The position numbers and the translations under genes were made by a program. Of a DNA stretch of 64,000 nucleotides, positions 32,804 to 61,343 are shown piece by piece; the first letter of the stretch is position 1, and each line of letters starts with the position of its first letter. The DNA comes from Oscillospiraceae bacterium (GTDB taxonomy: Bacteria; Bacillota_A; Clostridia; Oscillospirales; Oscillospiraceae), in the NCBI GenBank assembly GCA_017505505.1, contig JAFVPA010000014.1:1-64000 (forward strand), read 5' to 3'. Under the pieces are notes generated by a model. It did not search any database. It worked only from the letters and a program-made list of their open reading frames with translations, and was not told where the DNA came from.

Positions 32804-33319
32804 ATGGCAAAACAGCTCGTCGTCTACTATTCCCGCAAGGGAGAAAACCACATGCCCGGCGGCATCCAGATTTTGGAAAAGGGCAACACCGAATACGCAG
32901 CCGAATACATCGCCAAGGCCCTCAACGCCGACATTTTTGAGATCGACACCGTAAAGCCCTACGCAGCGGATTACAAGGCCTGCTGCGGCGAAGCCTTCGG
33001 CGAATTCAAAGCCAAGGCCCGCCCCCAGATCAAAGGCTTTGTGGAAGACATCAGCAGCTATGACACTATTTTTGTCTGCTACCCCTGCTGGTGCGGCACC
33101 GCGCCCATGTGCGTCTTCACTTTCCTGGAGCACTACGACTGGACCGGCAAGAAGCTCGTTCCCCTGTGCACCAACGAAGGCAGCGGCCTGGCCAACTCCG
33201 AGAAGGACATCGCCGCCAGCTGCCCCGGCGCCGTAATGGCCCCCGGCCTTTCCATCCGCGGCCACCAGTGCAAAGACAGCGAAGCACAACTCGCCGCCTG
33301 GGCCAAAGAAAATATCTGA
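32804..33319 (+). CDS. Flavodoxin-family protein
   Basis: This 171-residue protein opens with VVYYSRKGENHMPGG, the FMN phosphate-binding loop region, and has the 60s-type loop YPCWCGTAPMCVFTFLEHYD. The C-terminus carries GLSIRGHQCKD. It would carry electrons via FMN; relatives are annotated flavodoxin or NADPH-quinone reductase-like. The start follows AAGGAGAAAGCAAT. It is co-transcribed with the XRE regulator, so it may be its regulated target. Confidence 0.88.
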   Translation: MAKQLVVYYSRKGENHMPGGIQILEKGNTEYAAEYIAKALNADIFEIDTVKPYAADYKACCGEAFGEFKAKARPQIKGFVEDISSYDTIFVCYPCWCGTAPMCVFTFLEHYDWTGKKLVPLCTNEGSGLANSEKDIAASCPGAVMAPGLSIRGHQCKDSEAQLAAWAKENI

Positions 33320-33330
33320 TGAAGTCTTAA

Positions 33331-33444
33331 AAAATGTAGGGCGGAGGCCTGCCTCCGCCGGGCAGAAACAAAATCAGAGCGTTCAAATCATTCTGCTCAT
33401 TTTTCGTTACTGCCCGGCGGGGTCATGACCCCGCCCTACATTTT
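33331..33444. mobile_element. MITE-like element, 114 bp
   Basis: Perfect 14-bp terminal inverted repeats AAAATGTAGGGCGG and CCGCCCTACATTTT enclose two palindromes (GGCGGAGGCCTGCCTCCGCC and GGCGGGGTCATGACCCCGCC) and an inner inverted pair CCGGGCAG/CTGCCCGG. No coding capacity. It sits between two convergent genes and touches the stop codon of the DUF4179 gene. It shares its right palindrome with 15659-15686. Confidence 0.8.
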
Positions 33445-34412
33445 TATTTCACCGGGATCTCCGTCCCACAAACCACAACAGCCTGCACATCCTCCGGTCT
33501 GATGGGCACCTCAAACATAGCCCCGTAACGCCACTTGAACTTACCATCCTCCAAACTTCCGCCGCCTCCGAGATTCGCGTCCTTAATTTCCATATACGTC
33601 CCGTCCCTCAGCAGAAGCTGGGCGGTAAACCCCCGGTACGTTTTCTCCATGTGTTCACTGTCCCGCATAGGCGTTCCCAGCATTTTGATGTGGATGCCCA
33701 CAGGCGAAAGCAGCAGCTTCTGAATGGTATACTCCGCGCCATCCGCCCCCTTCACCGTCACACCCCTTGCCGGGATCTTCCGGGTGGTGTCTTCATAGCG
33801 GACCGTGAATTTCAGTTTCCACAGCCCCTCCTGTACCGGAATGTCGTCCTCCTTGCCCTTCTGCCAGATCACCAGATCCTGGAAGCTGGTCGTCACATTC
33901 CGTTTGATCCAGAACAGCCGGCTGGTACTGGTCCATTGCTCTGTGATATAAAGCGTCTTCCGGTCCTCACTGAGTCTGTAGGACATACTTCCACCGCCGG
34001 AGCCCCGGGCAAATCTACCCCCGGCCCAACGGCCAAACCGCAGTCCCTCCGGCAAAACCTCCCCATCCACATGGGTCAGGCTGTACACCGCCGCGATGTT
34101 GTACCGGTCTCCAATCACAGCGTCCGCCGTCAGGGTGTAATCGCCTACAGTTACAGATGCATTCAGCGGTACACCGATGCTTTCCACGATTTCTGTTTTA
34201 GCACCGCCATAGAAGGGTGCCAGCAGATTGCTGATATACCCGGTGCTCATCTCCGCGCTGACCGGCAGTACGAGGAAGCACATAGTCAAGCACGCCGCAA
34301 TAAGATTCCGTATCCCCCATTTTCTGCGGCCCATGGGGTGCCTCTCCGCTTCCTCCAAAATATCCTCCCGGATCTCTCCGATGGCCTCAAATAACAATTC
34401 AGCGTCCCTCAA
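33444..34412 (-). CDS. DUF4179-type anti-sigma factor-like membrane protein
   Basis: This 322-residue protein begins at a TTG (MRDAELLFEAIGEI) preceded by GGAGGGG, overlapping the sigma gene by 14 bases. A cytoplasmic N-terminus (about 30 residues), one membrane segment (NLIAACLTMCFLVLPVSA) and a large external domain typical of DUF4179 follow. In such pairs the short N-terminus holds the sigma factor and the outer domain senses stress. The stop codon sits in the terminal repeat of a MITE-like element. Confidence 0.8.
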   Translation of the reverse strand: MRDAELLFEAIGEIREDILEEAERHPMGRRKWGIRNLIAACLTMCFLVLPVSAEMSTGYISNLLAPFYGGAKTEIVESIGVPLNASVTVGDYTLTADAVIGDRYNIAAVYSLTHVDGEVLPEGLRFGRWAGGRFARGSGGGSMSYRLSEDRKTLYITEQWTSTSRLFWIKRNVTTSFQDLVIWQKGKEDDIPVQEGLWKLKFTVRYEDTTRKIPARGVTVKGADGAEYTIQKLLLSPVGIHIKMLGTPMRDSEHMEKTYRGFTAQLLLRDGTYMEIKDANLGGGGSLEDGKFKWRYGAMFEVPIRPEDVQAVVVCGTEIPVK

Positions 34413-35567: not shown

Positions 35568-36230
35568 TCATTTATCGTATGCGTTCATATGCACGAATGT
35601 CTGATACTCCAGATTATCCATCGAAAGTTTCAGTTCCATCTCTACAGGATGTAACGCCTTTCTTAAGCAATTCAGATCATACTGTGAGTAGGTTCCCGGC
35701 TTAAAATAGGCCATGGTAATATGCGGTGTTAATGCATAACCCAACGGTACAACAGATTCCAATGTCAGATACATCTCGTCCAGTCTGCACCAGGAATCCT
35801 CGTCTGCCGGCCTAAGTCCCAGAACGATGCTGGTATTGACCATATTGAACAGCCATGTTGCGTTCAGGACCAGGGGCCGCTGTCCCTGCCATTGTTCCAG
35901 AATAGGTTTTGCCTGATCCTCCGCTTTCTTCATTTTTGTTTTGAGATCATCTGACATTTCCGGTGCATTTACCAGATCATGGAGTGTCATATGAAAGGTG
36001 GAAGGATCCAGCTTCTGAGACAGCATCCAACCTGCTGCACAGTACAATTCATCCTGAACCTTCTGCAGATGTACCTTTGCGGTGTCATTCAGATCAAACA
36101 CGATCGTATTTCCAAAGAACGGAAGAAACGCTCCCGTCTGACTGACTTTCTTGCACAAATTCGGATTGGTAGTGAGATCCCCCCATTCCGGGAGGCTTTT
36201 GAAAATATATTTTTCCAATAAGTTGATCAT
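35568..36230 (-). CDS. 2H phosphoesterase (2'-5' RNA ligase-like) superfamily protein
   Basis: This 220-residue protein has the two H-x-T/S-x motifs of the superfamily: FHMTLHDL (about residue 80) and TPHITMAYF (about 170). Members hydrolyse or ligate 2',3'-cyclic phosphate RNA ends or cyclic nucleotides. The start follows AGGAGAAAAAT. It overlaps the zf-HC2 gene region. The nearest hammerhead ribozymes (38665-38892) make exactly this kind of RNA end, though a link is only suggested by proximity. Confidence 0.8.
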   Translation of the reverse strand: MINLLEKYIFKSLPEWGDLTTNPNLCKKVSQTGAFLPFFGNTIVFDLNDTAKVHLQKVQDELYCAAGWMLSQKLDPSTFHMTLHDLVNAPEMSDDLKTKMKKAEDQAKPILEQWQGQRPLVLNATWLFNMVNTSIVLGLRPADEDSWCRLDEMYLTLESVVPLGYALTPHITMAYFKPGTYSQYDLNCLRKALHPVEMELKLSMDNLEYQTFVHMNAYDK

Positions 36231-36277
36231 ATTTTTCTCCTGTCACAATACATTTTTTCAATAGAGGGTATCTTTGT

Positions 36278-36808
36278 TTATGCTGTGCTTTCCCTTACAG
36301 GATAGCACCAGGTACAATCCTTACCGATGCAGGACCCTGTACGGAAGTCACTCAGAAATGCCAGCTGCAAACCTGCGTGAAGCTCTGTATGGAAATTGGC
36401 CTCTATGTTGGGATGGGGATATACCTTAAAACAATACGGAATCTTGGACTGGGCCGGAATGCGGAGATTTTGCATCGTTGCTTCATCCATAATATGGACG
36501 CCCAGTTCTCTTCCCTGCATATCCGCTACGGAGATAAACATAATTTCCATGTTCCGAAGATGGTAGTCCGCATTTTGATTACAGAAATTCCCCTCAATGA
36601 CAATCATTTCTCCGTCCCACCGGTAGGATAACAGCTCATAGGAAAAATTTGAGGCAATCTCTGCCTCTCGTTCTTCCTGAAGCTTCCACATCTGCTGTAT
36701 TGTCCGAAAAACTGCCGTCAGGCCCGTTCCAATGCTGCAAAGGATCAATATCACAAGACAGGCCAGAAAGAACCCTCTTTTTGCAGACTGAATGTTCCAT
36801 AAATTCAT
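36278..36808 (-). CDS. Membrane-anchored protein of unknown function
   Basis: This 176-residue protein has one N-terminal membrane segment (GFFLACLVILILCSIGTGLT, residues about 12-31) and an external domain of about 140 residues with Cys near the end (GSCIGKDCTWCYPV). The segment EGNFCNQNADYHLRNMEIMF suggests a beta-rich FxLYD-like fold, weakly. The start follows GTGGGGAAATCACT. It is in line with the 2H gene 47 bases downstream. Confidence 0.6.
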   Translation of the reverse strand: MNLWNIQSAKRGFFLACLVILILCSIGTGLTAVFRTIQQMWKLQEEREAEIASNFSYELLSYRWDGEMIVIEGNFCNQNADYHLRNMEIMFISVADMQGRELGVHIMDEATMQNLRIPAQSKIPYCFKVYPHPNIEANFHTELHAGLQLAFLSDFRTGSCIGKDCTWCYPVRESTA

Positions 36809-36840
36809 AGTGATTTCCCCACTTTTTAAATAGATTTCAA

Positions 36841-36880
36841 ATAATCGGCCAGCAGAAAACCATCACCGCTGGCCGATTAT
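36841..36880. terminator. Terminator after the PHP gene pair
   Basis: ATAATCGGCCAGC pairs with GCTGGCCGATTAT (13 bp, 14-base loop). T-rich sequence follows on both sides. It ends the transcript 38600-37064 on the minus strand. Confidence 0.8.
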
Positions 36881-36976
36881 TTTGCGTGACCGCACGATTT
36901 CGCCAACCGTGCAACCCACTTACTTCGTTATCCTGATTTTCATACTAATTCTTGAGCAAAATATTTCACCGAGAAT

Positions 36977-37020
36977 GCTGTGCTGAAAGCACAGCTGAAT
37001 CTGCAGTACATTGCAGATTC
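36977..37020. other. Two adjacent strong hairpins, unknown role
   Basis: GCTGTGC/GCACAGC (36977-36995, 5-base loop) and GAATCTGCA/TGCAGATTC (36997-37020, 6-base loop) stand one base apart, with GAGA and TCTC outside them. They lie downstream of the PHP gene on the minus strand. No T-run follows, and no known RNA family is recognised. Confidence 0.5.
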
Positions 37021-37063
37021 CCGTCTCATCTGAGTCATTATGTAAAAGCTGTTAAGGCTTGTA

Positions 37064-37786
37064 TTAAGAATCAGTATCGTTTATCAGCAGTCTGGAGGCA
37101 TTTTGAAAACTGATTGCCTCCAGGTATCGTTTGCTGCAATTCTGTTGCAGCCAATTCATCCCCTGTTCAATGCTCGGTGGACGGTAGTAGCTGCGATGGG
37201 TGTCGGTCCCCAAAAAATCTACCAGTTTTTCGCGGATCAACGATCTGGCCCAGTCGCGAACGTTTTCTTCGCCATATTCTTCCAGACTATACACATTCAC
37301 CTGAATCAGGCAGCCACTCTGCCGAATATCGTGAATGTACGCCATCCGGCGCAAATAGACATACCGTTCCATATGTGCAATGATTGGGATCCACCCGGCC
37401 TGCTGCAGCTCGGATAAACAAAAGCTTGCGTCTTCAGGGGAGATCCAGGGAGAGAATTCAGCCAGAACATACCGGGTACCATTCATGGAAGGAAGTCTTT
37501 TGTTAGAGAGATATGCCAGAATAGCCGGCATATCTCTCTTCGCGCACATCACTTCACATCCCAAATAGAAGTTCAGTTCAGGAAAGATACCCTGAAGCAC
37601 AGTCTTCATTCGATAAAAATCCCTAAAAACCACATCTGAATTTTGGAAAAATGCTTCACTGTGAGGTGTTGCAAACACATCGGTGACACCCTGATTTTTT
37701 GCAAAGAAAACCTGAGAAATGGTACCGTTCAAAGAATCAGAACCATCGTCCACACAGGGAACAATGTGTGTATGAATATCAATCAT
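37064..37786 (-). CDS. CpsB/CapC-type PHP phosphatase
   Basis: This 240-residue protein has the full PHP metal set: MIDIHTHIVPCVDDGS at the N-terminus, FATPHSEAFF (about 38), LGCEVM (about 75), IIAHMERY (about 138) and LGTDTHRS (about 194). CpsB proteins are Mn-dependent protein-tyrosine phosphatases that control capsule synthesis kinases. No capsule genes are nearby, so the substrate here is unknown. It follows a degenerate paralogue 28 bases upstream in the same transcript, downstream of two hammerhead ribozymes. Confidence 0.87.
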   Translation of the reverse strand: MIDIHTHIVPCVDDGSDSLNGTISQVFFAKNQGVTDVFATPHSEAFFQNSDVVFRDFYRMKTVLQGIFPELNFYLGCEVMCAKRDMPAILAYLSNKRLPSMNGTRYVLAEFSPWISPEDASFCLSELQQAGWIPIIAHMERYVYLRRMAYIHDIRQSGCLIQVNVYSLEEYGEENVRDWARSLIREKLVDFLGTDTHRSYYRPPSIEQGMNWLQQNCSKRYLEAISFQNASRLLINDTDS

Positions 37787-37814: not shown

Positions 37815-38600
37815 TTATTCGCCTTCTACAGAAGGCCGAAACAGCCAACTCGCATTGCCCCAGGTAATGGCCTGCAGATAGTCAGGTGTGCAGATATTGG
37901 AAATAGATTCGATTTCCTCCCGAATATGCGGCGGATTCGTAAATGTATTCCGGGCATTGGTTGCCATAACGTCAACAACGCCGGAGCGGATCATCTCTCT
38001 TGGCCAGCTGTTGTCTTCAGAAAAATGAAGCGAAAAAGTATCCAGCTGGATCAGACAACGGAACTGATAGAATGCATCCCGAGGGGCTTCTCCCTTCAGA
38101 CACTTGATTTCATGGATATCGTGCTTCAGTGTGTAAATGTTCTGAGCATGGCTCAGAACCGGGTGATACCCTTCCTTATCCAGACGGTCCAGACAGAACC
38201 ACAGATCTTCCCGGGTAATGTCAACGGGGAAAGAAACCAAAACATAGGGGCTGTTGTTGAGGGTAGGCAAGTGCTTCTTTTTCAGATGGTAAATTACGTT
38301 CTCCACCTCGCTGCGGGAGCAGGTAATTTCGCAGCCCAAGCCGAGTTCCATCTTGGGCAGGAAATAACGGATTCTGCTGCGCAAAGACTTGTAACGTTCA
38401 GAGATGCTGGCAGGAATCCCCTCTGCTGCGGAATCCGTCAGCGCATCCAGAAAGGCTGCGCTGGGAGGAGTAGCCATGATAAAGCGGCAGCCCTGAGTAT
38501 ATGCTTCAAAAGCCATGCAGAACGCCATATCTTCATCCTGAGCACATTCGCAGAACGGTTCTGTACCATACATCAGATGATTCTTCGTATCAAAAAACAT
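37815..38600 (-). CDS. Degenerate PHP/CpsB-like protein (probable pseudoenzyme)
   Basis: This 261-residue protein starts MFFDTKNHLM after AAGGAGGCTTG. It aligns by eye with the next gene, but the metal ligands are lost: DxHTH has become DTKNHL, ATPHS has become ATPPS, and GTDTH has become ATNAR. GCEITC and one His (LSHAQN) remain. It is probably not a phosphatase; it may bind or regulate the active neighbour. It sits directly downstream of two tandem hammerhead ribozymes in its own 5' leader. Confidence 0.75.
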   Translation of the reverse strand: MFFDTKNHLMYGTEPFCECAQDEDMAFCMAFEAYTQGCRFIMATPPSAAFLDALTDSAAEGIPASISERYKSLRSRIRYFLPKMELGLGCEITCSRSEVENVIYHLKKKHLPTLNNSPYVLVSFPVDITREDLWFCLDRLDKEGYHPVLSHAQNIYTLKHDIHEIKCLKGEAPRDAFYQFRCLIQLDTFSLHFSEDNSWPREMIRSGVVDVMATNARNTFTNPPHIREEIESISNICTPDYLQAITWGNASWLFRPSVEGE

Positions 38601-38664
38601 GATCAAGCCTCCTTGTATTATTTGGCCGTTGGCCATAAAAATGTATAGGATCCTATTGTGGCTT

Positions 38665-38724
38665 TCCACGACCGGCATTGGACTGCCGGTTTCGGTTCGT
38701 GGCCGGCGAACCTCATCAGGTGGA
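38665..38724 (-). ncRNA. Hammerhead ribozyme B (type I)
   Basis: The minus strand has the full hammerhead core. Stem I is TCCAC with GTGGA, then CTGATGA (38719-38713). Stem II is GGTTCG/CGAACC with loop CCGGCCA, then GAA. Stem III is ACCGGCA/TGCCGGT with loop GTCCAA, then C17. Predicted cleavage is between 38670 and 38669. All conserved core bases are present. The ends leave through stem I (type I). After cleavage the new 5' end GTGGAAAGCCAC can fold on itself, which would block re-ligation. Confidence 0.92.
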
Positions 38725-38834
38725 TATTGCGAACAGGGAAACGGAAACACAGGTACTTGCAGCGACGCGGCAACAATTCTTCCACATCATGCAGTTGCGA
38801 TGTGCAGATGGCTACCTGCCATCTGTGTACAGCT

Positions 38835-38892
38835 TCCCACGACCCCATTATGGAGTTTCGGCTGACAGCCAATCAGCCATCATCAGGCGGGA
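38835..38892 (-). ncRNA. Hammerhead ribozyme A (type I, one core insertion)
   Basis: On the minus strand stem I is TCCCGC with GTGGGA (one G-U), then CTGATGA (38886-38880), then one extra T at 38879. Stem II is GGCTGA/TCAGCC with loop TTGGCTG, then GAA. Stem III is ACTCCA/TGGGGT with a 3-base loop, then C17. Predicted cleavage is between 38841 and 38840. The inserted T between the core and stem II departs from the consensus and may slow it. It is the upstream member of the pair. Confidence 0.85.
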
Positions 38893-38907
38893 TATGGTAT
38901 GTCTTGG

Positions 38908-38936
38908 ATGCTAAAATTTTACCATGGGCCCAGCAA
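38908..38936 (-). promoter_or_regulatory. Candidate promoter of the ribozyme/PHP transcript
   Basis: TTGCTG, 17 bases, TAGCAT on the minus strand. The predicted start near 38901 is only about 9 bases before hammerhead A. The boxes are weak matches. Confidence 0.4.
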
Positions 38937-38968
38937 GCCCACATCCCATCTCACACGGAAAGACAAAA

Positions 38969-38998
38969 ATTCCCCCGGTGATGCTTCACCGGGGGAAT
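38969..38998 (-). terminator. Terminator of the AAA+/Hsp70-like operon
   Basis: ATTCCCCCGGTGA pairs with TCACCGGGGGAAT (13 bp, 4-base loop), followed by TTTTTG on the minus strand, 12 bases after the AAA+ stop codon. Confidence 0.93.
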
Positions 38999-39009
38999 AA
39001 ACATATCAA

Positions 39010-40875
39010 TTATCTATACTGTTCTTTCAGCAATCGGTCCATGGTGTTGCCTATCCAGCGGACCATTCTCTGATCGTAGAGGGAAAGGTGCTTGTACTGG
39101 GAATCCGGAATATTCAGGCACAGGGGCATCTGACGCATATCCATCCAATCTTTTTTGCTGTCGGGCGTAGCCTTGTCCGGGGTATAGGTTTCCCGGCTGA
39201 ACAGGGGCTGCTCAGAATTGGCCGGATGGGTGTTTTCCTGCAGCACGGTCATATAGGTCAGGGCTGCGGTTTCCAGAGTTTTGCGGATCCGGGAGTCTAC
39301 AGTGAACCTACCCTGCGCGACAGCCCGTTTCATAGCATCCCTGGCCGCTGCTCTGCGGCTTTCCGACCAACCTGTTGCTTCATAGACCCTGCTGCCAGGA
39401 AGCAGATCCATCTCAATGACCATTTCATTAGCCAGTGCTGTGATATCCGCGCCGGTGAGGAAGCAGGCATAGTCTTCCTGATCCAGAGCGGCACAGATAT
39501 CCACCAGTTCTCTCGCCAGCGGCTTGTTCTCGCTGCCCAGATGATGGCGGATATTGTCATTCATAATAGATACGCATTCTTCATAAGTAGGCAGCATTAG
39601 GCTGAAAATCATGCTGAACCGTCCGGAGCGTAAAAATTCAGGATGCTTTGTAGAGATAGCAGAAATATCATTGGCGGTAGCTACGATGAACACAGACCGC
39701 TTCATCTCCTGCATGAAGGTCAGCAGTTTTGCAAAAATCCGGGTCATTGCAGCGCTGCCACTGTCACCACCTCCGTTTTCCCAGAGCTTTTCCACCTCGT
39801 CCATCCAAAGCACGCAGGGTGCGCCGGCGGACTGCAGATCCTCCAGGATTTCATCCATATTTTTATCAGACTCGCCCAGGTGCTTATCCAAGATCCGGCT
39901 CATTTCCAGCTTGATCAGAGGAAGTCCCAGAATGGCGGCACAGGCCTTAGCCATCATGCTCTTTCCGGTACCGGGCAAGCCCAGCAGCAGAATTCCTTTG
40001 GTAATGTCCTTTTCGCTGTCAAAATCCGTACGGCGGATATTGGCCCGGTGCTTTCTCAGCCATTTACGTACCGGCTTAAGACCTTGCCCCTCGTCTATTG
40101 CTTCCATACATTCCAGCCTGCCGTGAGCCTTGAGCTGCTTATTTTTTGCTTCCCGGATCACGGCTTCAGCAATTTTCCTGTTCAGCAGTCGGGTCTCGTC
40201 TGCAGAGCCATAGTGGATACTATCCAGAATATTGCGTACCTTCAGTTCCGGAAAACCAGCCAGATTGTCGGCATACCAGCCGGACAGATCCTTCATTTTT
40301 TCATTATACCGCTCCCATTCCCGGGGATCTTTGGGCCGCTCCCAGTATTCGGAAAGAAGCAGTCGAAAATCCTCCTGATTCAGAGCCGGTAATTCGATCC
40401 GGGCCACATGGGGCTCCAGCACACTGGGAATTTTCACCTGGCGGCCATAGATGACCATGCAGCTTCTGGGGCCGGGTTCTCCTGCGTACCGGGAAGCACT
40501 GCACAGCTCCTGGTAATCCATCAGGTATTTTAAGTGGGCCTTGTCCAGTTCCCCCTTTTCATCAGCAGCCAAATAAATGACCACCTGTTCCTTTTCCAGA
40601 AGCGTCAGCCAGAGGTCCGTATCCTCCTCTTCAAAAGAAACCTTTTTCCGGGCTCTGGACTTCTTCAGAATATCCTCCAGACGGATGTAGTTCTGGCTCC
40701 TCCGGCCGGGGATATAGACGCTCCGGTCCCCGGCACTGTCGAAAAAGGCTTCCTGCAGGATAGCCTGGACCTGAGCGAAGTCGTCCGTCACCAGGTGCAA
40801 TATGGGTGTGCAGCCTGCCAGCGCCCGGCGGGTCTCCCCCCGGGCGCTGTTCGTAGAGTTTGTAATTTTAACCAT
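39010..40875 (-). CDS. AAA+ ATPase of an Hsp70-associated operon
   Basis: This 621-residue protein has an N-terminal region of about 270 residues (including PILHLVTDDFAQVQAILQEA, Ycf46-like) and an AAA core with Walker A GLPGTGKSMMAKA (about 299-308). Walker B is VLWMDEVEKLW (about 355) and the sensor/Arg region is FIVATANDISAI to FLRSGRF. A C-terminal domain of about 190 residues follows. It probably remodels a protein target with ATP, perhaps together with the Hsp70-like partner 10 bases upstream. It is last in the operon 47215-39010. The start follows GAGGAGGTTTCC. Confidence 0.87.
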   Translation of the reverse strand: MVKITNSTNSARGETRRALAGCTPILHLVTDDFAQVQAILQEAFFDSAGDRSVYIPGRRSQNYIRLEDILKKSRARKKVSFEEEDTDLWLTLLEKEQVVIYLAADEKGELDKAHLKYLMDYQELCSASRYAGEPGPRSCMVIYGRQVKIPSVLEPHVARIELPALNQEDFRLLLSEYWERPKDPREWERYNEKMKDLSGWYADNLAGFPELKVRNILDSIHYGSADETRLLNRKIAEAVIREAKNKQLKAHGRLECMEAIDEGQGLKPVRKWLRKHRANIRRTDFDSEKDITKGILLLGLPGTGKSMMAKACAAILGLPLIKLEMSRILDKHLGESDKNMDEILEDLQSAGAPCVLWMDEVEKLWENGGGDSGSAAMTRIFAKLLTFMQEMKRSVFIVATANDISAISTKHPEFLRSGRFSMIFSLMLPTYEECVSIMNDNIRHHLGSENKPLARELVDICAALDQEDYACFLTGADITALANEMVIEMDLLPGSRVYEATGWSESRRAAARDAMKRAVAQGRFTVDSRIRKTLETAALTYMTVLQENTHPANSEQPLFSRETYTPDKATPDSKKDWMDMRQMPLCLNIPDSQYKHLSLYDQRMVRWIGNTMDRLLKEQYR

Positions 40876-54891: not shown

Positions 54892-54953
54892 AACTGCACC
54901 CTATTTGTTAGACAAGTATGAAATAATACTTGTACTAAAAATAGGGTGCAGTT
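54892..54953. terminator. Nested hairpin at the island's right edge
   Basis: AACTGCACCCTATTT pairs with AAATAGGGTGCAGTT (15 bp perfect), enclosing a second stem ACAAGTAT/ATACTTGT (54912-54933). It lies between convergent genes and can act as a terminator in both directions, or mark an insertion border. Confidence 0.75.
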
Positions 54954-58461: not shown

Positions 58462-60129
58462 ATGGACAAGAAAGAATACCCGGAGCTGGAGGAAACCACT
58501 GTTCTTCCCGAAGAACAGCCTGCTCCCCCTGTGGAACCGGTGGAGGATATGCCCGTCATTGAAGAGCTGACCTTCTCCGCAGAACCCCACGTGGAGCTTC
58601 CCTCCGTTCCGAACGAGATAGAACCCGACGAAACACCGATACCCGAAGCAATGCCCGAATTGGAGAGCGCACCTGCTGCGAAGGAGATTCCCGGTGATCC
58701 CCAGCCAGCCCCCAGCGCTGAGCCTGCCGTTCTTCCAATGCCTGAGGAAGTGTCCGCGGAAGCGTCCCAATCTGCTCCTGCCGAAGTGGTAGCTCCCATT
58801 GAGATCCTCCCCGACACCCAGGCCATGGATGCCCACGGTATGCTGGACCACGGTGAGGAAGAACCGCCCTTCGACATGAGCATTCTGGATGACCCGGAGC
58901 TGGCCATTCCGGAAGAACCCCCTGTGGAAGAAATTCAAGATCAGGAATACCGTGACAACGGCAAGGAATTCGATGCCATGTTCCACGCCCCTGCTCCCAA
59001 ACAGAAGGAACCGGAGCCTCCCCGCCAGGCTCCCAAGGGCCGCCCCAAGCGGAAAAAGGGCGAAGGCCTGCTGGGTATCCCCAACATTCTCGTCACCATC
59101 GTGTGGCTGGCCCTGATCGTAGCCATCGGTGTCACCGCAGGCCGTATGCTGTGGATCTGCGCCGCCGATGTTCTGGCCTTTGGCCGGGAGGACAAGCCTG
59201 TCACCATCACCATCTACGAAGCTGACACCATGGATGACATTATCAACAAGCTCCAGGAAAACGGCCTGATCCGTTATAAGAGCCTGTTTAAATTCTACGC
59301 AGATATCTCCGATGCGGAAGAAGACATCAAACCCGGTATCTACGACCTGAACACCCGCTACGATTACCACGCCCTGGTCAACTTCATGTCTCCCCGTTCC
59401 AGCCGCGAGGTCATTACCCTTACCATCCCCGAAGGCTATACCAGCGCCCAGATCTTCCGCCTGCTGGAGGAAAATCGTATTTGCACCGCCCAGGATATTG
59501 CCGCTTACGCCGCCAACGGTGAGCTGGATCCTTACTGGTTCCTGGAGGGTATCCAGCGGGGCAGCGAAAATTGTCTGGAGGGCTACCTCTTCCCCGATAC
59601 CTACGAGTTCTATAAGAACTCCACCCCACGGGAAGCCCTGCAAAGAATGCTGAACAACTTTGATTACCGTTTTGACGCAGACATGCGTGCCCGGATCGAT
59701 GCCCTGAACGCCGAGCTTACCGGAAACTACACCATCCGGGAGATCGCCATTGTGGCATCCCTTATTGAGAAGGAATCCGCCGCACCCGCTGAAAGTCCCA
59801 AGATCGCCGGTGTCATCTACAACCGTCTGTTCAACTGGGGCAACAACCCTCCCTATCTGAACATTGACGCCTCCATCGTCTACGCCCAGGGCGGCGACAC
59901 GGAGCACATCGACACCAAGCTGGACAGCCCCTACAACACCTATACGAACACCGGCCTGACCCCCGGCCCCATCGCCAACCCCGGTCTTGCCAGCCTGAAG
60001 GCTGCCCTGAATCCCGAATCCCACAACTATTACTACTACGTTCTGAATCCTGCCACCGGTATGCACCAGTTCTCCACCACCTATGACGAGCACACCGGCT
60101 ATGTGCGCAGCTTCGCGGAGGCCCAATGA
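58462..60129 (+). CDS. mltG: MltG-type endolytic transglycosylase with a long cytoplasmic N-terminus
   Basis: This 555-residue protein has about 200 acidic, Pro-rich residues at the N-terminus, then one membrane segment (NILVTIVWLALIVAIGVTAG, about 207-226). The YceG domain ends with the catalytic region IVASLIEKESAAPAESPKIA (Glu about 436), GDTEHIDTKL and PGPIANPGLASLKAAL. It cuts nascent glycan strands outside the membrane. The disordered N-terminus is far longer than in E. coli MltG. The start follows AAGGAGGAAACC. It overlaps the U32 gene. Confidence 0.93.
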   Translation: MDKKEYPELEETTVLPEEQPAPPVEPVEDMPVIEELTFSAEPHVELPSVPNEIEPDETPIPEAMPELESAPAAKEIPGDPQPAPSAEPAVLPMPEEVSAEASQSAPAEVVAPIEILPDTQAMDAHGMLDHGEEEPPFDMSILDDPELAIPEEPPVEEIQDQEYRDNGKEFDAMFHAPAPKQKEPEPPRQAPKGRPKRKKGEGLLGIPNILVTIVWLALIVAIGVTAGRMLWICAADVLAFGREDKPVTITIYEADTMDDIINKLQENGLIRYKSLFKFYADISDAEEDIKPGIYDLNTRYDYHALVNFMSPRSSREVITLTIPEGYTSAQIFRLLEENRICTAQDIAAYAANGELDPYWFLEGIQRGSENCLEGYLFPDTYEFYKNSTPREALQRMLNNFDYRFDADMRARIDALNAELTGNYTIREIAIVASLIEKESAAPAESPKIAGVIYNRLFNWGNNPPYLNIDASIVYAQGGDTEHIDTKLDSPYNTYTNTGLTPGPIANPGLASLKAALNPESHNYYYYVLNPATGMHQFSTTYDEHTGYVRSFAEAQ

Positions 60130-61343
60130 GAAAATTAGAACTGCTTAGTCCCGCCGGAGATATGGAACGGCTGAAAATGTCTGTCCTCTATGGTGCGGAT
60201 GCCGTCTATCTTGCCGGAACCAGCTTCGGTATGCGCTCCTTTGCCGGGAATTTCACCCCGGAGGAGCTGCCAATCGCCGTAAAATACGCCCACGACCACG
60301 GGGTCAAGTGCCATGTCACCGTGAACACCATGCCCCGTAATGACGAAGTTGTCCACCTGCCTGCCTATTTGGAGCAGCTGGACGCAGCCGGGGTGGATGC
60401 CCTGATTCTGGCAGACCTGGGTGCCTTCACCCTGGCAGGAAAATATGCCCCCCGCTGCGAGCGGCATATCTCCACGCAGCAATCCATCGCCAACTACGAG
60501 TGCGCCCAGGCCTGGTTCGACCTGGGTGCCACCCGGGTAGTTCTGGCCCGGGAGTGCTCTCTGGAGGAAGTCCGCACCATCCGTCAAAAAGTCGATCCCA
60601 AGCTGGAAATCGAGACCTTCGGCCATGGTGCCATGTGCGTCAGCTACTCCGGCCGCTGCCTTCTCAGCAACTACATGACCGGCCGGGACTCTAACCGTGG
60701 TGCCTGCGCCCAGCCCTGCCGCTACCAGTATGCCCTGATGGAGGAAAAGCGCCCCGGCGAATATTTCCCCGTCTACGAGGACGAAAAGGGTACATATATC
60801 CTCAATTCCCGGGATATGTGCATGATCGACCATTTAAAAGATCTGATGGATGCCGGCGTGGACTGCATCAAAATTGAGGGCCGTGCCAAATCCGCCTATT
60901 ACGCCGCCATTGTCACCGGAGCTTACCGCCATTGCATCGACGATGTGGCCGCGGGCCGTCCTGTAGATCCGGTGTGGCGGGACGAGGTGGACCACGTTTC
61001 CCACCGGATCTATTCCACCGGCTTCTACTACGGCGAGCCCGGCCAGTATACCGCCAATTCCCGCTATATCCGGGAATGGCAGATCGTGGCAAAAGTCGAA
61101 TCCTGCGACGAAAACGGCGTAGCCGTTTGCTCCCTGAACAACAAATTCAAAGCCGGGGACGAACTGGAAGTGGTGGGTCCCGACCTGCGCCCCTTCCCCA
61201 TCGTGGCGGAAAAGATGTTCGACAAAGAGGGAAACGCACTGGAGGAACCCAAGCGTCCCGAAATGAAATTCACCATCCAGCTTCCCAAACAGGTCCCTGC
61301 CCTGTCCATGCTCCGCCGCTCTGTGGATCTGTCCGCAAAGTAA
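60126..61343 (+). CDS. Peptidase U32 family protein
   Basis: This 405-residue protein has LSPAGDMERLKMSVLYGADA at the start and the U32 signature ETFGHGAMCVSYSGRCLLSN (about 159-178), followed by Cys-rich GACAQPCRYQY. U32 proteins such as TrhP/RlhA act in tRNA or rRNA hydroxylation, others were described as collagenases; here the Fe-S Cys set fits the RNA-modifying group. It overlaps MltG by ATGA. The C-terminal 80 residues are a beta domain. Confidence 0.92.
   Translation: MRKLELLSPAGDMERLKMSVLYGADAVYLAGTSFGMRSFAGNFTPEELPIAVKYAHDHGVKCHVTVNTMPRNDEVVHLPAYLEQLDAAGVDALILADLGAFTLAGKYAPRCERHISTQQSIANYECAQAWFDLGATRVVLARECSLEEVRTIRQKVDPKLEIETFGHGAMCVSYSGRCLLSNYMTGRDSNRGACAQPCRYQYALMEEKRPGEYFPVYEDEKGTYILNSRDMCMIDHLKDLMDAGVDCIKIEGRAKSAYYAAIVTGAYRHCIDDVAAGRPVDPVWRDEVDHVSHRIYSTGFYYGEPGQYTANSRYIREWQIVAKVESCDENGVAVCSLNNKFKAGDELEVVGPDLRPFPIVAEKMFDKEGNALEEPKRPEMKFTIQLPKQVPALSMLRRSVDLSAK

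What the first reader, a model, noticed from the sequence alone, without database searches (positions are those of the whole stretch)
38665..38892. Two tandem hammerhead ribozymes upstream of a degenerate PHP gene
Seen: two complete hammerhead cores lie on the minus strand (38835-38892 and 38665-38724). Each has CTGATGA, a stem II, GAA, an A-U closed stem III and a C at the cleavage position, with a paired stem I. Copy B is consensus; copy A has one extra T after CTGATGA. The predicted cuts, 38841/38840 and 38670/38669, release a 171-base RNA. The downstream mRNA would carry a 5'-OH and can refold (GTGGAAAGCCAC) to prevent re-ligation. Known: hammerhead ribozymes occur in bacteria, but their roles there are mostly unclear, and tandem pairs flanking a fixed RNA resemble retrozymes or circular-RNA producers. 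Inference: the pair sets mRNA levels of the PHP gene pair, or makes a small (possibly circular) RNA for the nearby island.
Basis: partly seen in the sequence, partly recalled or inferred. Interest (0 to 1): 0.95.

Follow-up and report, generated by a model that had tools for sequence, protein, structure and literature searches.

The report
Twin self-cutting RNAs before a gene
A bacterium related to gut Oscillospiraceae has two hammerhead ribozyme motifs in a row in front of a gene pair, predicted to cut its messenger RNA twice, and many of their relatives in phages share a small hairpin that would lock the cut so that it cannot be undone.

Summary
The minus strand carries exactly two complete type I hammerhead ribozyme motifs (A 38892-38835, B 38724-38665). 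A covariance model built from 54 phage-contig hammerheads, without the window, finds both (E 7.5e-15 and 7.9e-16) and nothing else in 64 kb. Rfam misses them, but it also reported 0 of 23 type I hammerheads in 20 phage loci.

They belong to the known hammerhead kind of phages and mobile elements, with its frequent extra T and loop II pseudoknot. Here they lie outside any recognised phage gene, in a roughly 21-kb island missing at the same junction in four relatives, upstream of a CpsB/CapC-like pseudo-enzyme and an intact CpsB/CapC gene.

Most likely both cut the leader as it is made. A 12-nt hairpin re-using stem I's 3' strand (GUGG AAAG CCAC) would then cap the mRNA and make the cut one-way. 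Its outer pairs covary in a subset of phage hammerheads, and a test fixed in advance succeeded on a second set. The gene-less 171-nt interval is unusual: 74 of 75 phage tandem pairs enclose an ORF. Ring closure is predicted to be disfavoured. No cleavage was measured, and the nearest homologous loci could not be reached.

The parts
38835..38892 (-). Hammerhead A, type I, with extra T at 38879; predicted cut between C38841 and G38840
   Evidence: R3 61.6 bits, E 7.5e-15
38665..38724 (-). Hammerhead B, type I; predicted cut between C38670 and G38669
   Evidence: R3 65.2 bits, E 7.9e-16
38670..38840 (-). 171-nt RNA predicted to be released by the two cuts (contains all of B except its stem I 3' strand)
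   Evidence: coordinates; its first 111 nt fold with z -2.5, 3 of 200 shuffles as good
38658..38669 (-). Lock hairpin of B: GUGG-AAAG-CCAC, predicted to form after the cut at the new 5' end of the mRNA
   Evidence: predicted pairing 0.90-1.00 with 40-120 nt of mRNA, 0.41 with 200 nt; class covariation
38736..38838 (-). Predicted 7-bp stem 38838-38832 with 38742-38736 (GGGAAGC/GUUUCCC) that captures the stem I 3' strand of A after its cut
   Evidence: pair probabilities 0.99 or more in the 171-nt RNA
38831..38870 (-). Pseudoknot of A: loop II GGC(U) 38870-38867 with 38834-38831 (one G-U pair)
   Evidence: alignment columns 26-28 with 72-74
38660..38704 (-). Pseudoknot of B: loop II GGC 38704-38702 with GCC 38662-38660
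   Evidence: alignment columns 26-28 with 72-74
38716..38790 (-). 24-aa open frame between the ribozymes; its stop is the TGA of core B; no ribosome-binding site seen by eye; may be meaningless
38916..38924 (-). Possible extended -10 promoter (TGGTAAAAT), seen by eye only
   Evidence: sequence; the promoter scan did not report it
38969..38998 (-). Terminator-like hairpin after the AAA gene (13-bp stem, then TTTTTG)
   Evidence: 1 found, 0.4 expected in shuffles
37815..38600 (-). CpsB/CapC-like pseudo-enzyme, first gene after B; ATG 69 nt after cut B
   Evidence: PF19567 E 3.5e-20; homologues begin MFFD
37064..37786 (-). Intact CpsB/CapC PHP phosphatase gene
   Evidence: PF19567 E 1.4e-51
36278..36808 (-). 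Protein of unknown function downstream in the same direction
   Evidence: no Pfam, NCBIfam or PHROG match
35568..36230 (-). 2H-type phosphoesterase-like protein with both HxT motifs
   Evidence: weak PF13563 match below cut-off (E 6e-4); motifs at residues 80 and 170; some of its 120 listed homologues carry PF13563, PF08975 or PF02834

Best explanation
The minus strand at 38892-38665 holds two complete type I hammerhead ribozyme motifs that are predicted to cut the leader of the PHP-operon mRNA twice as it is transcribed, likely leaving an mRNA that begins with a 5'-OH and a 12-nt lock hairpin. Shown by sequence: both cores, all helices, the pseudoknot pairings, and the position between a terminator-like hairpin and the PHP gene. 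Inferred: transcription starts shortly upstream of A; A cuts, then B. After cut B the 3' strand of stem I (GUGG) would leave the ribozyme and pair with CCAC eight bases on, which would stop re-ligation and put a hairpin flush at the 5' end of the mRNA, slowing decay from that end. After cut A the matching strand is predicted to be captured by a 7-bp stem with GUUUCCC, so the 171-nt middle RNA would stay linear. The main output is thus a trimmed mRNA with a fixed, hairpin-capped 5' end; the middle RNA is a by-product or a structured small RNA.
For: Identity. Class fold and pseudoknot: 95.1% of cells paired against 70.2% shuffled, 0 of 500 shuffles reach any of five measures (51 sequences including A and B). 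Lock: both outer pairs formed in 40 of 78 (expected 24.1, 0 of 2000) and, as a test written down first, in 29 of 50 of a second set (expected 18.3, 0 of 2000). Position: in 129 of 149 phage-type hammerheads with enough sequence (2 of the 161 examined are the window's) an ORF with a ribosome-site-like motif starts within 400 nt of the cut, median 44 nt, against 136 nt from random positions. In the family genome G425 a copy cuts 61 nt before an ArdC-like gene. Predicted lock pairing 0.90-1.00 for 40-120 nt of mRNA. Self-cleavage of other tandem bacterial hammerheads in vitro, and of a triple set in E. coli, is reported in PMC3088659 (passages).
Against: No cleavage was measured. In the uncut leader the energy model gives stem I of A 0.00 and of B 0.14, and the lock 0.75, so cutting must beat competitors during transcription; the model ignores the pseudoknot. 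Lock pairing falls to 0.41 with 200 nt of mRNA. On all 51 aligned sequences the lock signal is weak (69.1% against 66.2% paired, 15 of 500), and the C/T-G/A association over all 159 is not significant (p 0.19). A has no standard lock. No promoter was reported upstream of A. Whether homologous loci keep the pair is unknown.
Confidence: 0.58

Rival explanations
1. Relic: the pair was carried in from a phage or other mobile element, lost most of the gene between the ribozymes, and now only happens to stand before the PHP genes.
For: In the same genus two strong hammerhead hits (G132, G128) lie on contigs with phage genes. 74 of 75 phage tandem pairs enclose an ORF of 35 aa or more, and in 19 that ORF stops on the TGA of the next core, as the 24-aa frame here does. 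The pair lies in an island absent at the same junction in four relatives.
Against: Both copies keep every core base, all helices and pseudoknot pairings, unlike decaying sequence. No phage structural family matched ten proteins tested around it. Another gene-less pair exists in L589.
Confidence: 0.2
2. Circular-RNA producer or retrozyme-like element: ribozyme B closes the excised 171-nt RNA into a ring, using the 5' strand left by A.
For: Two hammerheads in one direction flank a fixed-length RNA; the A 3' strand can form up to 5 pairs with the B 5' strand. Retrozymes make circular RNAs this way (PMC4918200, search listing and start of abstract only).
Against: Hybrid stem I probability about 0.001, 4.8 kcal/mol penalty. 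No direct repeats of 12 nt or more between the copies. PMC3088659 reports that circular products of tandem bacterial hammerheads were looked for and not detected (passage).
Confidence: 0.07
3. Regulated riboswitch-like leader: the folded middle region or a bound factor decides whether B can form, and so sets PHP expression.
For: The 111 nt after cut A fold better than shuffles (z -2.5, 3 of 200), and strong alternative pairings compete with stem I of both ribozymes.
Against: No Rfam riboswitch match; no relatives of the middle region found, so no conservation evidence.
Confidence: 0.12

Closest known systems
Tandem hammerheads flanking single genes in bacterial prophages (Perreault et al. 2011, PMC3088659; passages read)
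   Same: Type I hammerheads in tandem, loop II pseudoknot, gene-proximal, same strand as the downstream gene
   Different: Here no gene (at most 24 aa) lies between them, no phage gene was recognised around them, and the downstream genes are CpsB/CapC-like; Rfam does not detect them
Type I hammerheads of IMG/VR phage contigs, including L589 (this work)
   Same: Core, stems, extra T, pseudoknot, cut shortly before an ORF; L589 also has two copies 103 nt apart with no ORF of 35 aa between
   Different: Window copies are in a chromosomal island; copy A lacks the standard lock and has a predicted long-range one
Retrozymes (PMC4918200; search listing and start of abstract)
   Same: Hammerheads at both ends of an RNA of fixed length
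   Different: Bacterial, copies diverged and not direct repeats, ring closure predicted unfavourable

Membership tests
Type I hammerhead ribozyme | Conserved core CUGANGA, GAA, A-U closing stem III, non-G at the cut | tested here: met
Type I hammerhead ribozyme | Three helices, stems II and III closed by loops, stem I open | tested here: met
Type I hammerhead ribozyme | Match to a covariance model of other members, built without the window | tested here: met
   61.6 and 65.2 bits
Type I hammerhead ribozyme | Loop II tertiary contact (pseudoknot form) | tested here: met
   B by three Watson-Crick pairs, A with one G-U pair
Type I hammerhead ribozyme | Rfam gathering score (a database threshold, not a defining trait) | tested here: not met
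   control searches show that Rfam reported 0 of 23 type I phage examples
Type I hammerhead ribozyme | Self-cleavage | not testable with these tools
   needs in vitro transcription
Retrozyme | Hammerheads in near-identical direct (terminal) repeats | tested here: not met
   no direct repeats in 38560-39010; A and B diverged
Retrozyme | Circular RNA product | tested here: inconclusive
   predicts it unfavourable; no experiment

The most novel reading that the evidence does not exclude
Many phage and bacterial type I hammerheads are one-way switches: the same CC that holds the ribozyme together through the loop II pseudoknot before the cut pairs with the freed 3' strand of stem I after it, which makes cleavage irreversible and caps the new mRNA 5' end with a hairpin. 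The window's gene-less pair is a stand-alone two-cut leader of this kind that serves a host island operon rather than a phage.
Probability: 0.42. Interest if true: 0.72.

Novelty: new variant of a known kind. Interest (0 to 1): 0.55.

Why it matters
The passages read here (PMC3088659, PMC6155905) call the roles of bacterial hammerheads unclear or an open question. The lock hairpin offers a concrete, testable answer: irreversible trimming that leaves a 5'-OH mRNA with a flush 5' hairpin. The gene-less pair before a CpsB/CapC operon is a small, separable test case outside a recognised phage. The Rfam control (0 of 23 type I examples in 20 loci) suggests that this branch is under-annotated.

Tried and rejected
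Chance resemblance: rejected. Rfam negative as refutation: rejected by the control. Circular RNA: disfavoured by prediction. Prophage around the pair: ten proteins tested gave only ATPase, protease, partition-protein and similar non-structural PHROG matches.

Homologous loci of the pseudo-enzyme: alignment A2 found none in GTDB r220 contigs or IMG/VR. In whole genomes it found only distant relatives: 7 of 20 at E 1e-5, 14 of 136 genus genomes at 1e-20, 3 of 400 family genomes at 1e-25, 0 of 394 order genomes at 1e-30. By tblastn the best of these loci are closer to the intact CpsB than to the pseudo-enzyme. The scanner saw no hammerhead in L001-L101 or L102-L103, and model R3 none in L081, L089-L092, L102 and L103. 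So conservation of the pair at true homologues is untested.

Model R1 (the two window copies): 1 of 136 genus genomes at E 0.07, without an intact core on reading. AAA protein: 0 of 136 genus genomes at E 1e-60, with no positive control. Leader by BLASTN: no match in phages or plasmids. CpsB in IMG/VR: none. PADLOC: partial matches for the AAA, Hsp70-like, SNF2 and MoxR-like proteins, none for the four genes downstream of B. Direct repeats between A and B: none.

Literature: no description of the lock hairpin seen in six answered searches or in passages of two papers; subscription papers are mostly not held.

For some searches and 88 rows with scanner score under 14 or cut by a contig end were dropped, then sequences at or above 85% similarity. 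One search had 239 type I hits; one search kept 234 rows and 161 non-redundant, 2 of them the window's; one search kept 196 rows and 138. The 75 tandem pairs were not made non-redundant. Shared descent below 85% similarity remains, so permutation counts are not exact probabilities. The statistic was chosen after looking at the first set; only one search is a test fixed in advance.

Full report
WHAT IS THERE. On the minus strand, 38892-38835 and 38724-38665 each spell a complete hammerhead: stem I 5' strand, CTGATGA, stem II, GAA, a stem III closed by A-U, C at the cut, and the stem I 3' strand. A scanner for type I, II and III topologies reports only these two in 64 kb, with 19 and 18 base pairs in total. 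In 60 dinucleotide-preserving shuffles it reports one type I match (score 12), three type III and no type II. Between A and B, 3 of 6 stem II pairs change on both sides and stay paired (weak by itself, 65 of 500 shuffles reach it with two sequences).

RFAM AND A BETTER TEST. Rfam 15 reports no hammerhead over the window at gathering score, none at E up to 1 over 4.5 kb, none at E up to 10 over 281 bases. I tested Rfam itself: in 20 phage-contig loci that hold 23 type I hammerheads (in 18 of the loci) and one type II by my scanner, Rfam at gathering score reported the type II and none of the type I. I then built a covariance model, R3, from 54 phage-contig sequences without the window. It scores B 65.2 bits (E 7.9e-16) and A 61.6 bits (E 7.5e-15) and finds nothing else in the window up to E 10. 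E-values of such models are rough by the tool's own note. Membership in the type I hammerhead kind is well supported; activity is untested.

THE CLASS. Pattern scans of IMG/VR brought in loci that, with all other loci and the window, hold 239 type I hits. They reduce to 161 non-redundant sequences, 159 without the window's two. The extra T of copy A is frequent: 98 of 161. On 51 aligned sequences including A and B the ribozyme fold plus a 3-bp pseudoknot between loop II and the strand 3' of stem I is paired in 95.1% of cells against 70.2% in shuffles, with 227 cells changed on both sides against 56.9; 0 of 500 shuffles reach any of the five measures. Such a pseudoknot in bacterial hammerheads was described in PMC3088659 (passages).

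THE LOCK HAIRPIN. In the first phage set a 4-bp, 4-nt-loop hairpin starting at the cut forms in 46 of 159 (permuted mean 25.5, maximum 35 in 300); of the loop lengths 3 and 5-8, only 7 also exceeds its permutations (13 against 5.4, maximum 11). In an earlier, looser count (loops 3-10) it was 101 of 210 against 33 in shuffles, while the mirror-image hairpin upstream was 11 of 210 against 9.75. Because two of the four pairs use the CC of the pseudoknot, I tested only the two outer pairs in the subset with CC in register: both form in 40 of 78 against 24.1 expected, 0 of 2000 permutations. I wrote this test down and ran it on scans with the CTGACGA core, keeping only sequences under 85% similar to the first set: 29 of 50 against 18.3, 0 of 2000; the C/T against G/A association at the second pair has p 0.0004. 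Results against it: on all 51 aligned sequences the signal is weak (69.1% against 66.2%, 15 of 500), the association over all 159 has p 0.19, and the full hairpin is present in only 46 of 159 and 35 of 138. I read it as a feature of a large subset, in which the freed stem I strand is captured by bases that also serve the pseudoknot. My six answered searches did not show it described; the search is limited.

HOW IT WOULD WORK HERE. A terminator-like hairpin (38998-38969) ends the upstream AAA gene, so the leader probably has its own promoter. I see an extended -10 (TGGTAAAAT, 38924-38916) by eye; the scan reported no promoter there. Cut B lies 69 nt before the ATG at 38600, the start supported by homologues that begin MFFD; the script's mechanical pick was an earlier in-frame ATG at 33 nt. 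Of 161 non-redundant hammerheads (the window's two included), 12 were cut off by contig ends, 129 have an ORF with a ribosome-site-like motif within 400 nt (median 44, quartiles 37 and 73) and 20 have none; from random positions the median is 136 nt. Predicted lock pairing at the new 5' end is 0.90-1.00 for 40 to 120 nt of mRNA but 0.41 for 200 nt. In the 171-nt product GGGAAGC pairs with GUUUCCC at 0.99 or more, and the hybrid stem I needed for ring closure has about 0.001, a 4.8 kcal/mol penalty. In the uncut leader the same model gives stem I 0.00 for A and at most 0.14 for B, and the lock 0.75. So the ribozymes must act during transcription or be helped by the pseudoknot and core contacts, which the model ignores. 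That hammerheads leave 5'-OH and 2',3'-cyclic phosphate ends, and that a flush 5' hairpin slows 5' decay, is recalled and not tested here.

WHAT IS UNUSUAL. Of 75 tandem phage pairs 60-600 nt apart (contigs not de-duplicated), 74 enclose an ORF of 35 aa or more, and in 19 its stop codon is the TGA of the next core; the exception is L589, with 103 nt between cuts. Here the interval is 171 nt with at best a 24-aa frame that also ends on that TGA; I see no ribosome site. By my rough reckoning such a frame is not surprising by chance. The first 111 nt of the interval fold better than shuffles (z -2.5, 3 of 200). No relative of the leader was found in phage or plasmid records.

CONTEXT. By the TrhP-like protein (60126-61343) the closest named genome is an Oscillospiraceae MAG at 92%; named Candidatus Faecousia genomes reach 87%. 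In ten regions fetched from relatives at the DprA end, four (G001, G007, G018, G003) have DprA directly followed by a homologue of 32804-33319 (flavodoxin-like by eye); the other six keep DprA but show another neighbourhood. None of the ten carries the AAA, Hsp70-like, PHP, CpsB or 2H genes at E 1e-10; G018 has a distant sigma-factor homologue nearby. The pair thus lies in an island of about 21 kb (33.3-55.0 kb). With R3, hammerheads occur in 3 of 136 genomes of that genus (one weak, E 0.008) and in 18 of 400 of the family at E 0.001. The two strong genus cases lie on contigs with a serine recombinase and baseplate and tail genes (G132) or baseplate and tail genes (G128); in G425 one copy cuts 61 nt before an ArdC-like gene. 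Ten proteins around the window's pair matched no phage structural family. The gene after B keeps the CpsB/CapC fold signature (E 3.5e-20) but has lost residues that I recall as metal ligands (HTH reads KNH, DTH reads NAR). It is conserved in 23 non-identical homologues, hence a pseudo-enzyme rather than a dying gene. An intact CpsB follows, and two genes on lies a 2H-type protein with both HxT motifs. 2H enzymes are recalled to act on cyclic phosphate ends such as hammerheads make, a tempting link. But a 2H gene also adjoins a CpsB homologue in L102 and L103, where neither scanner nor model saw a hammerhead, so the link may be coincidental.

VERDICT. Real, complete hammerheads of a known kind in an uncommon, gene-less arrangement; one-way trimming of the leader is the likeliest mechanism; function is unproven.

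Noticed in passing
window 33320-54970: An island of about 21 kb (sigma factor, 2H protein, CpsB pair, AAA, Hsp70-like, SNF2 helicase, MoxR-like, DUF2201) sits between a flavodoxin-like gene and DprA; four of ten relatives have these two genes side by side.
   Followed up: partly
window 33330-33445 and 54892-54953: Large inverted repeats lie at both ends of that island: 51-nt arms, 80% complementary, and 28-nt arms, 86% complementary. They could be small mobile repeats or traces of insertion.
   Followed up: no
window 35568-37786; L102, L103: A 2H-type phosphoesterase gene neighbours a CpsB/CapC gene here and in two distant relatives; the pairing has no explanation yet.
   Followed up: partly
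L190, L163, L150: Phage contigs with type I hammerheads also hold two pistol ribozymes (L190), a twister-P5 (L163) and a type II hammerhead (L150) by Rfam: several self-cleaving classes in one contig.
   Followed up: no
phage loci from L105 on: Rfam at gathering score reported 0 of 23 type I hammerheads in 20 loci, and in 19 of 75 tandem pairs the stop codon of the enclosed ORF is the TGA of the next ribozyme core.
   Followed up: partly
G425 (L343, L360, L365, L368, L374): One family genome carries 12 hammerhead hits over several contigs, some before an ArdC-like anti-restriction gene.
   Followed up: partly
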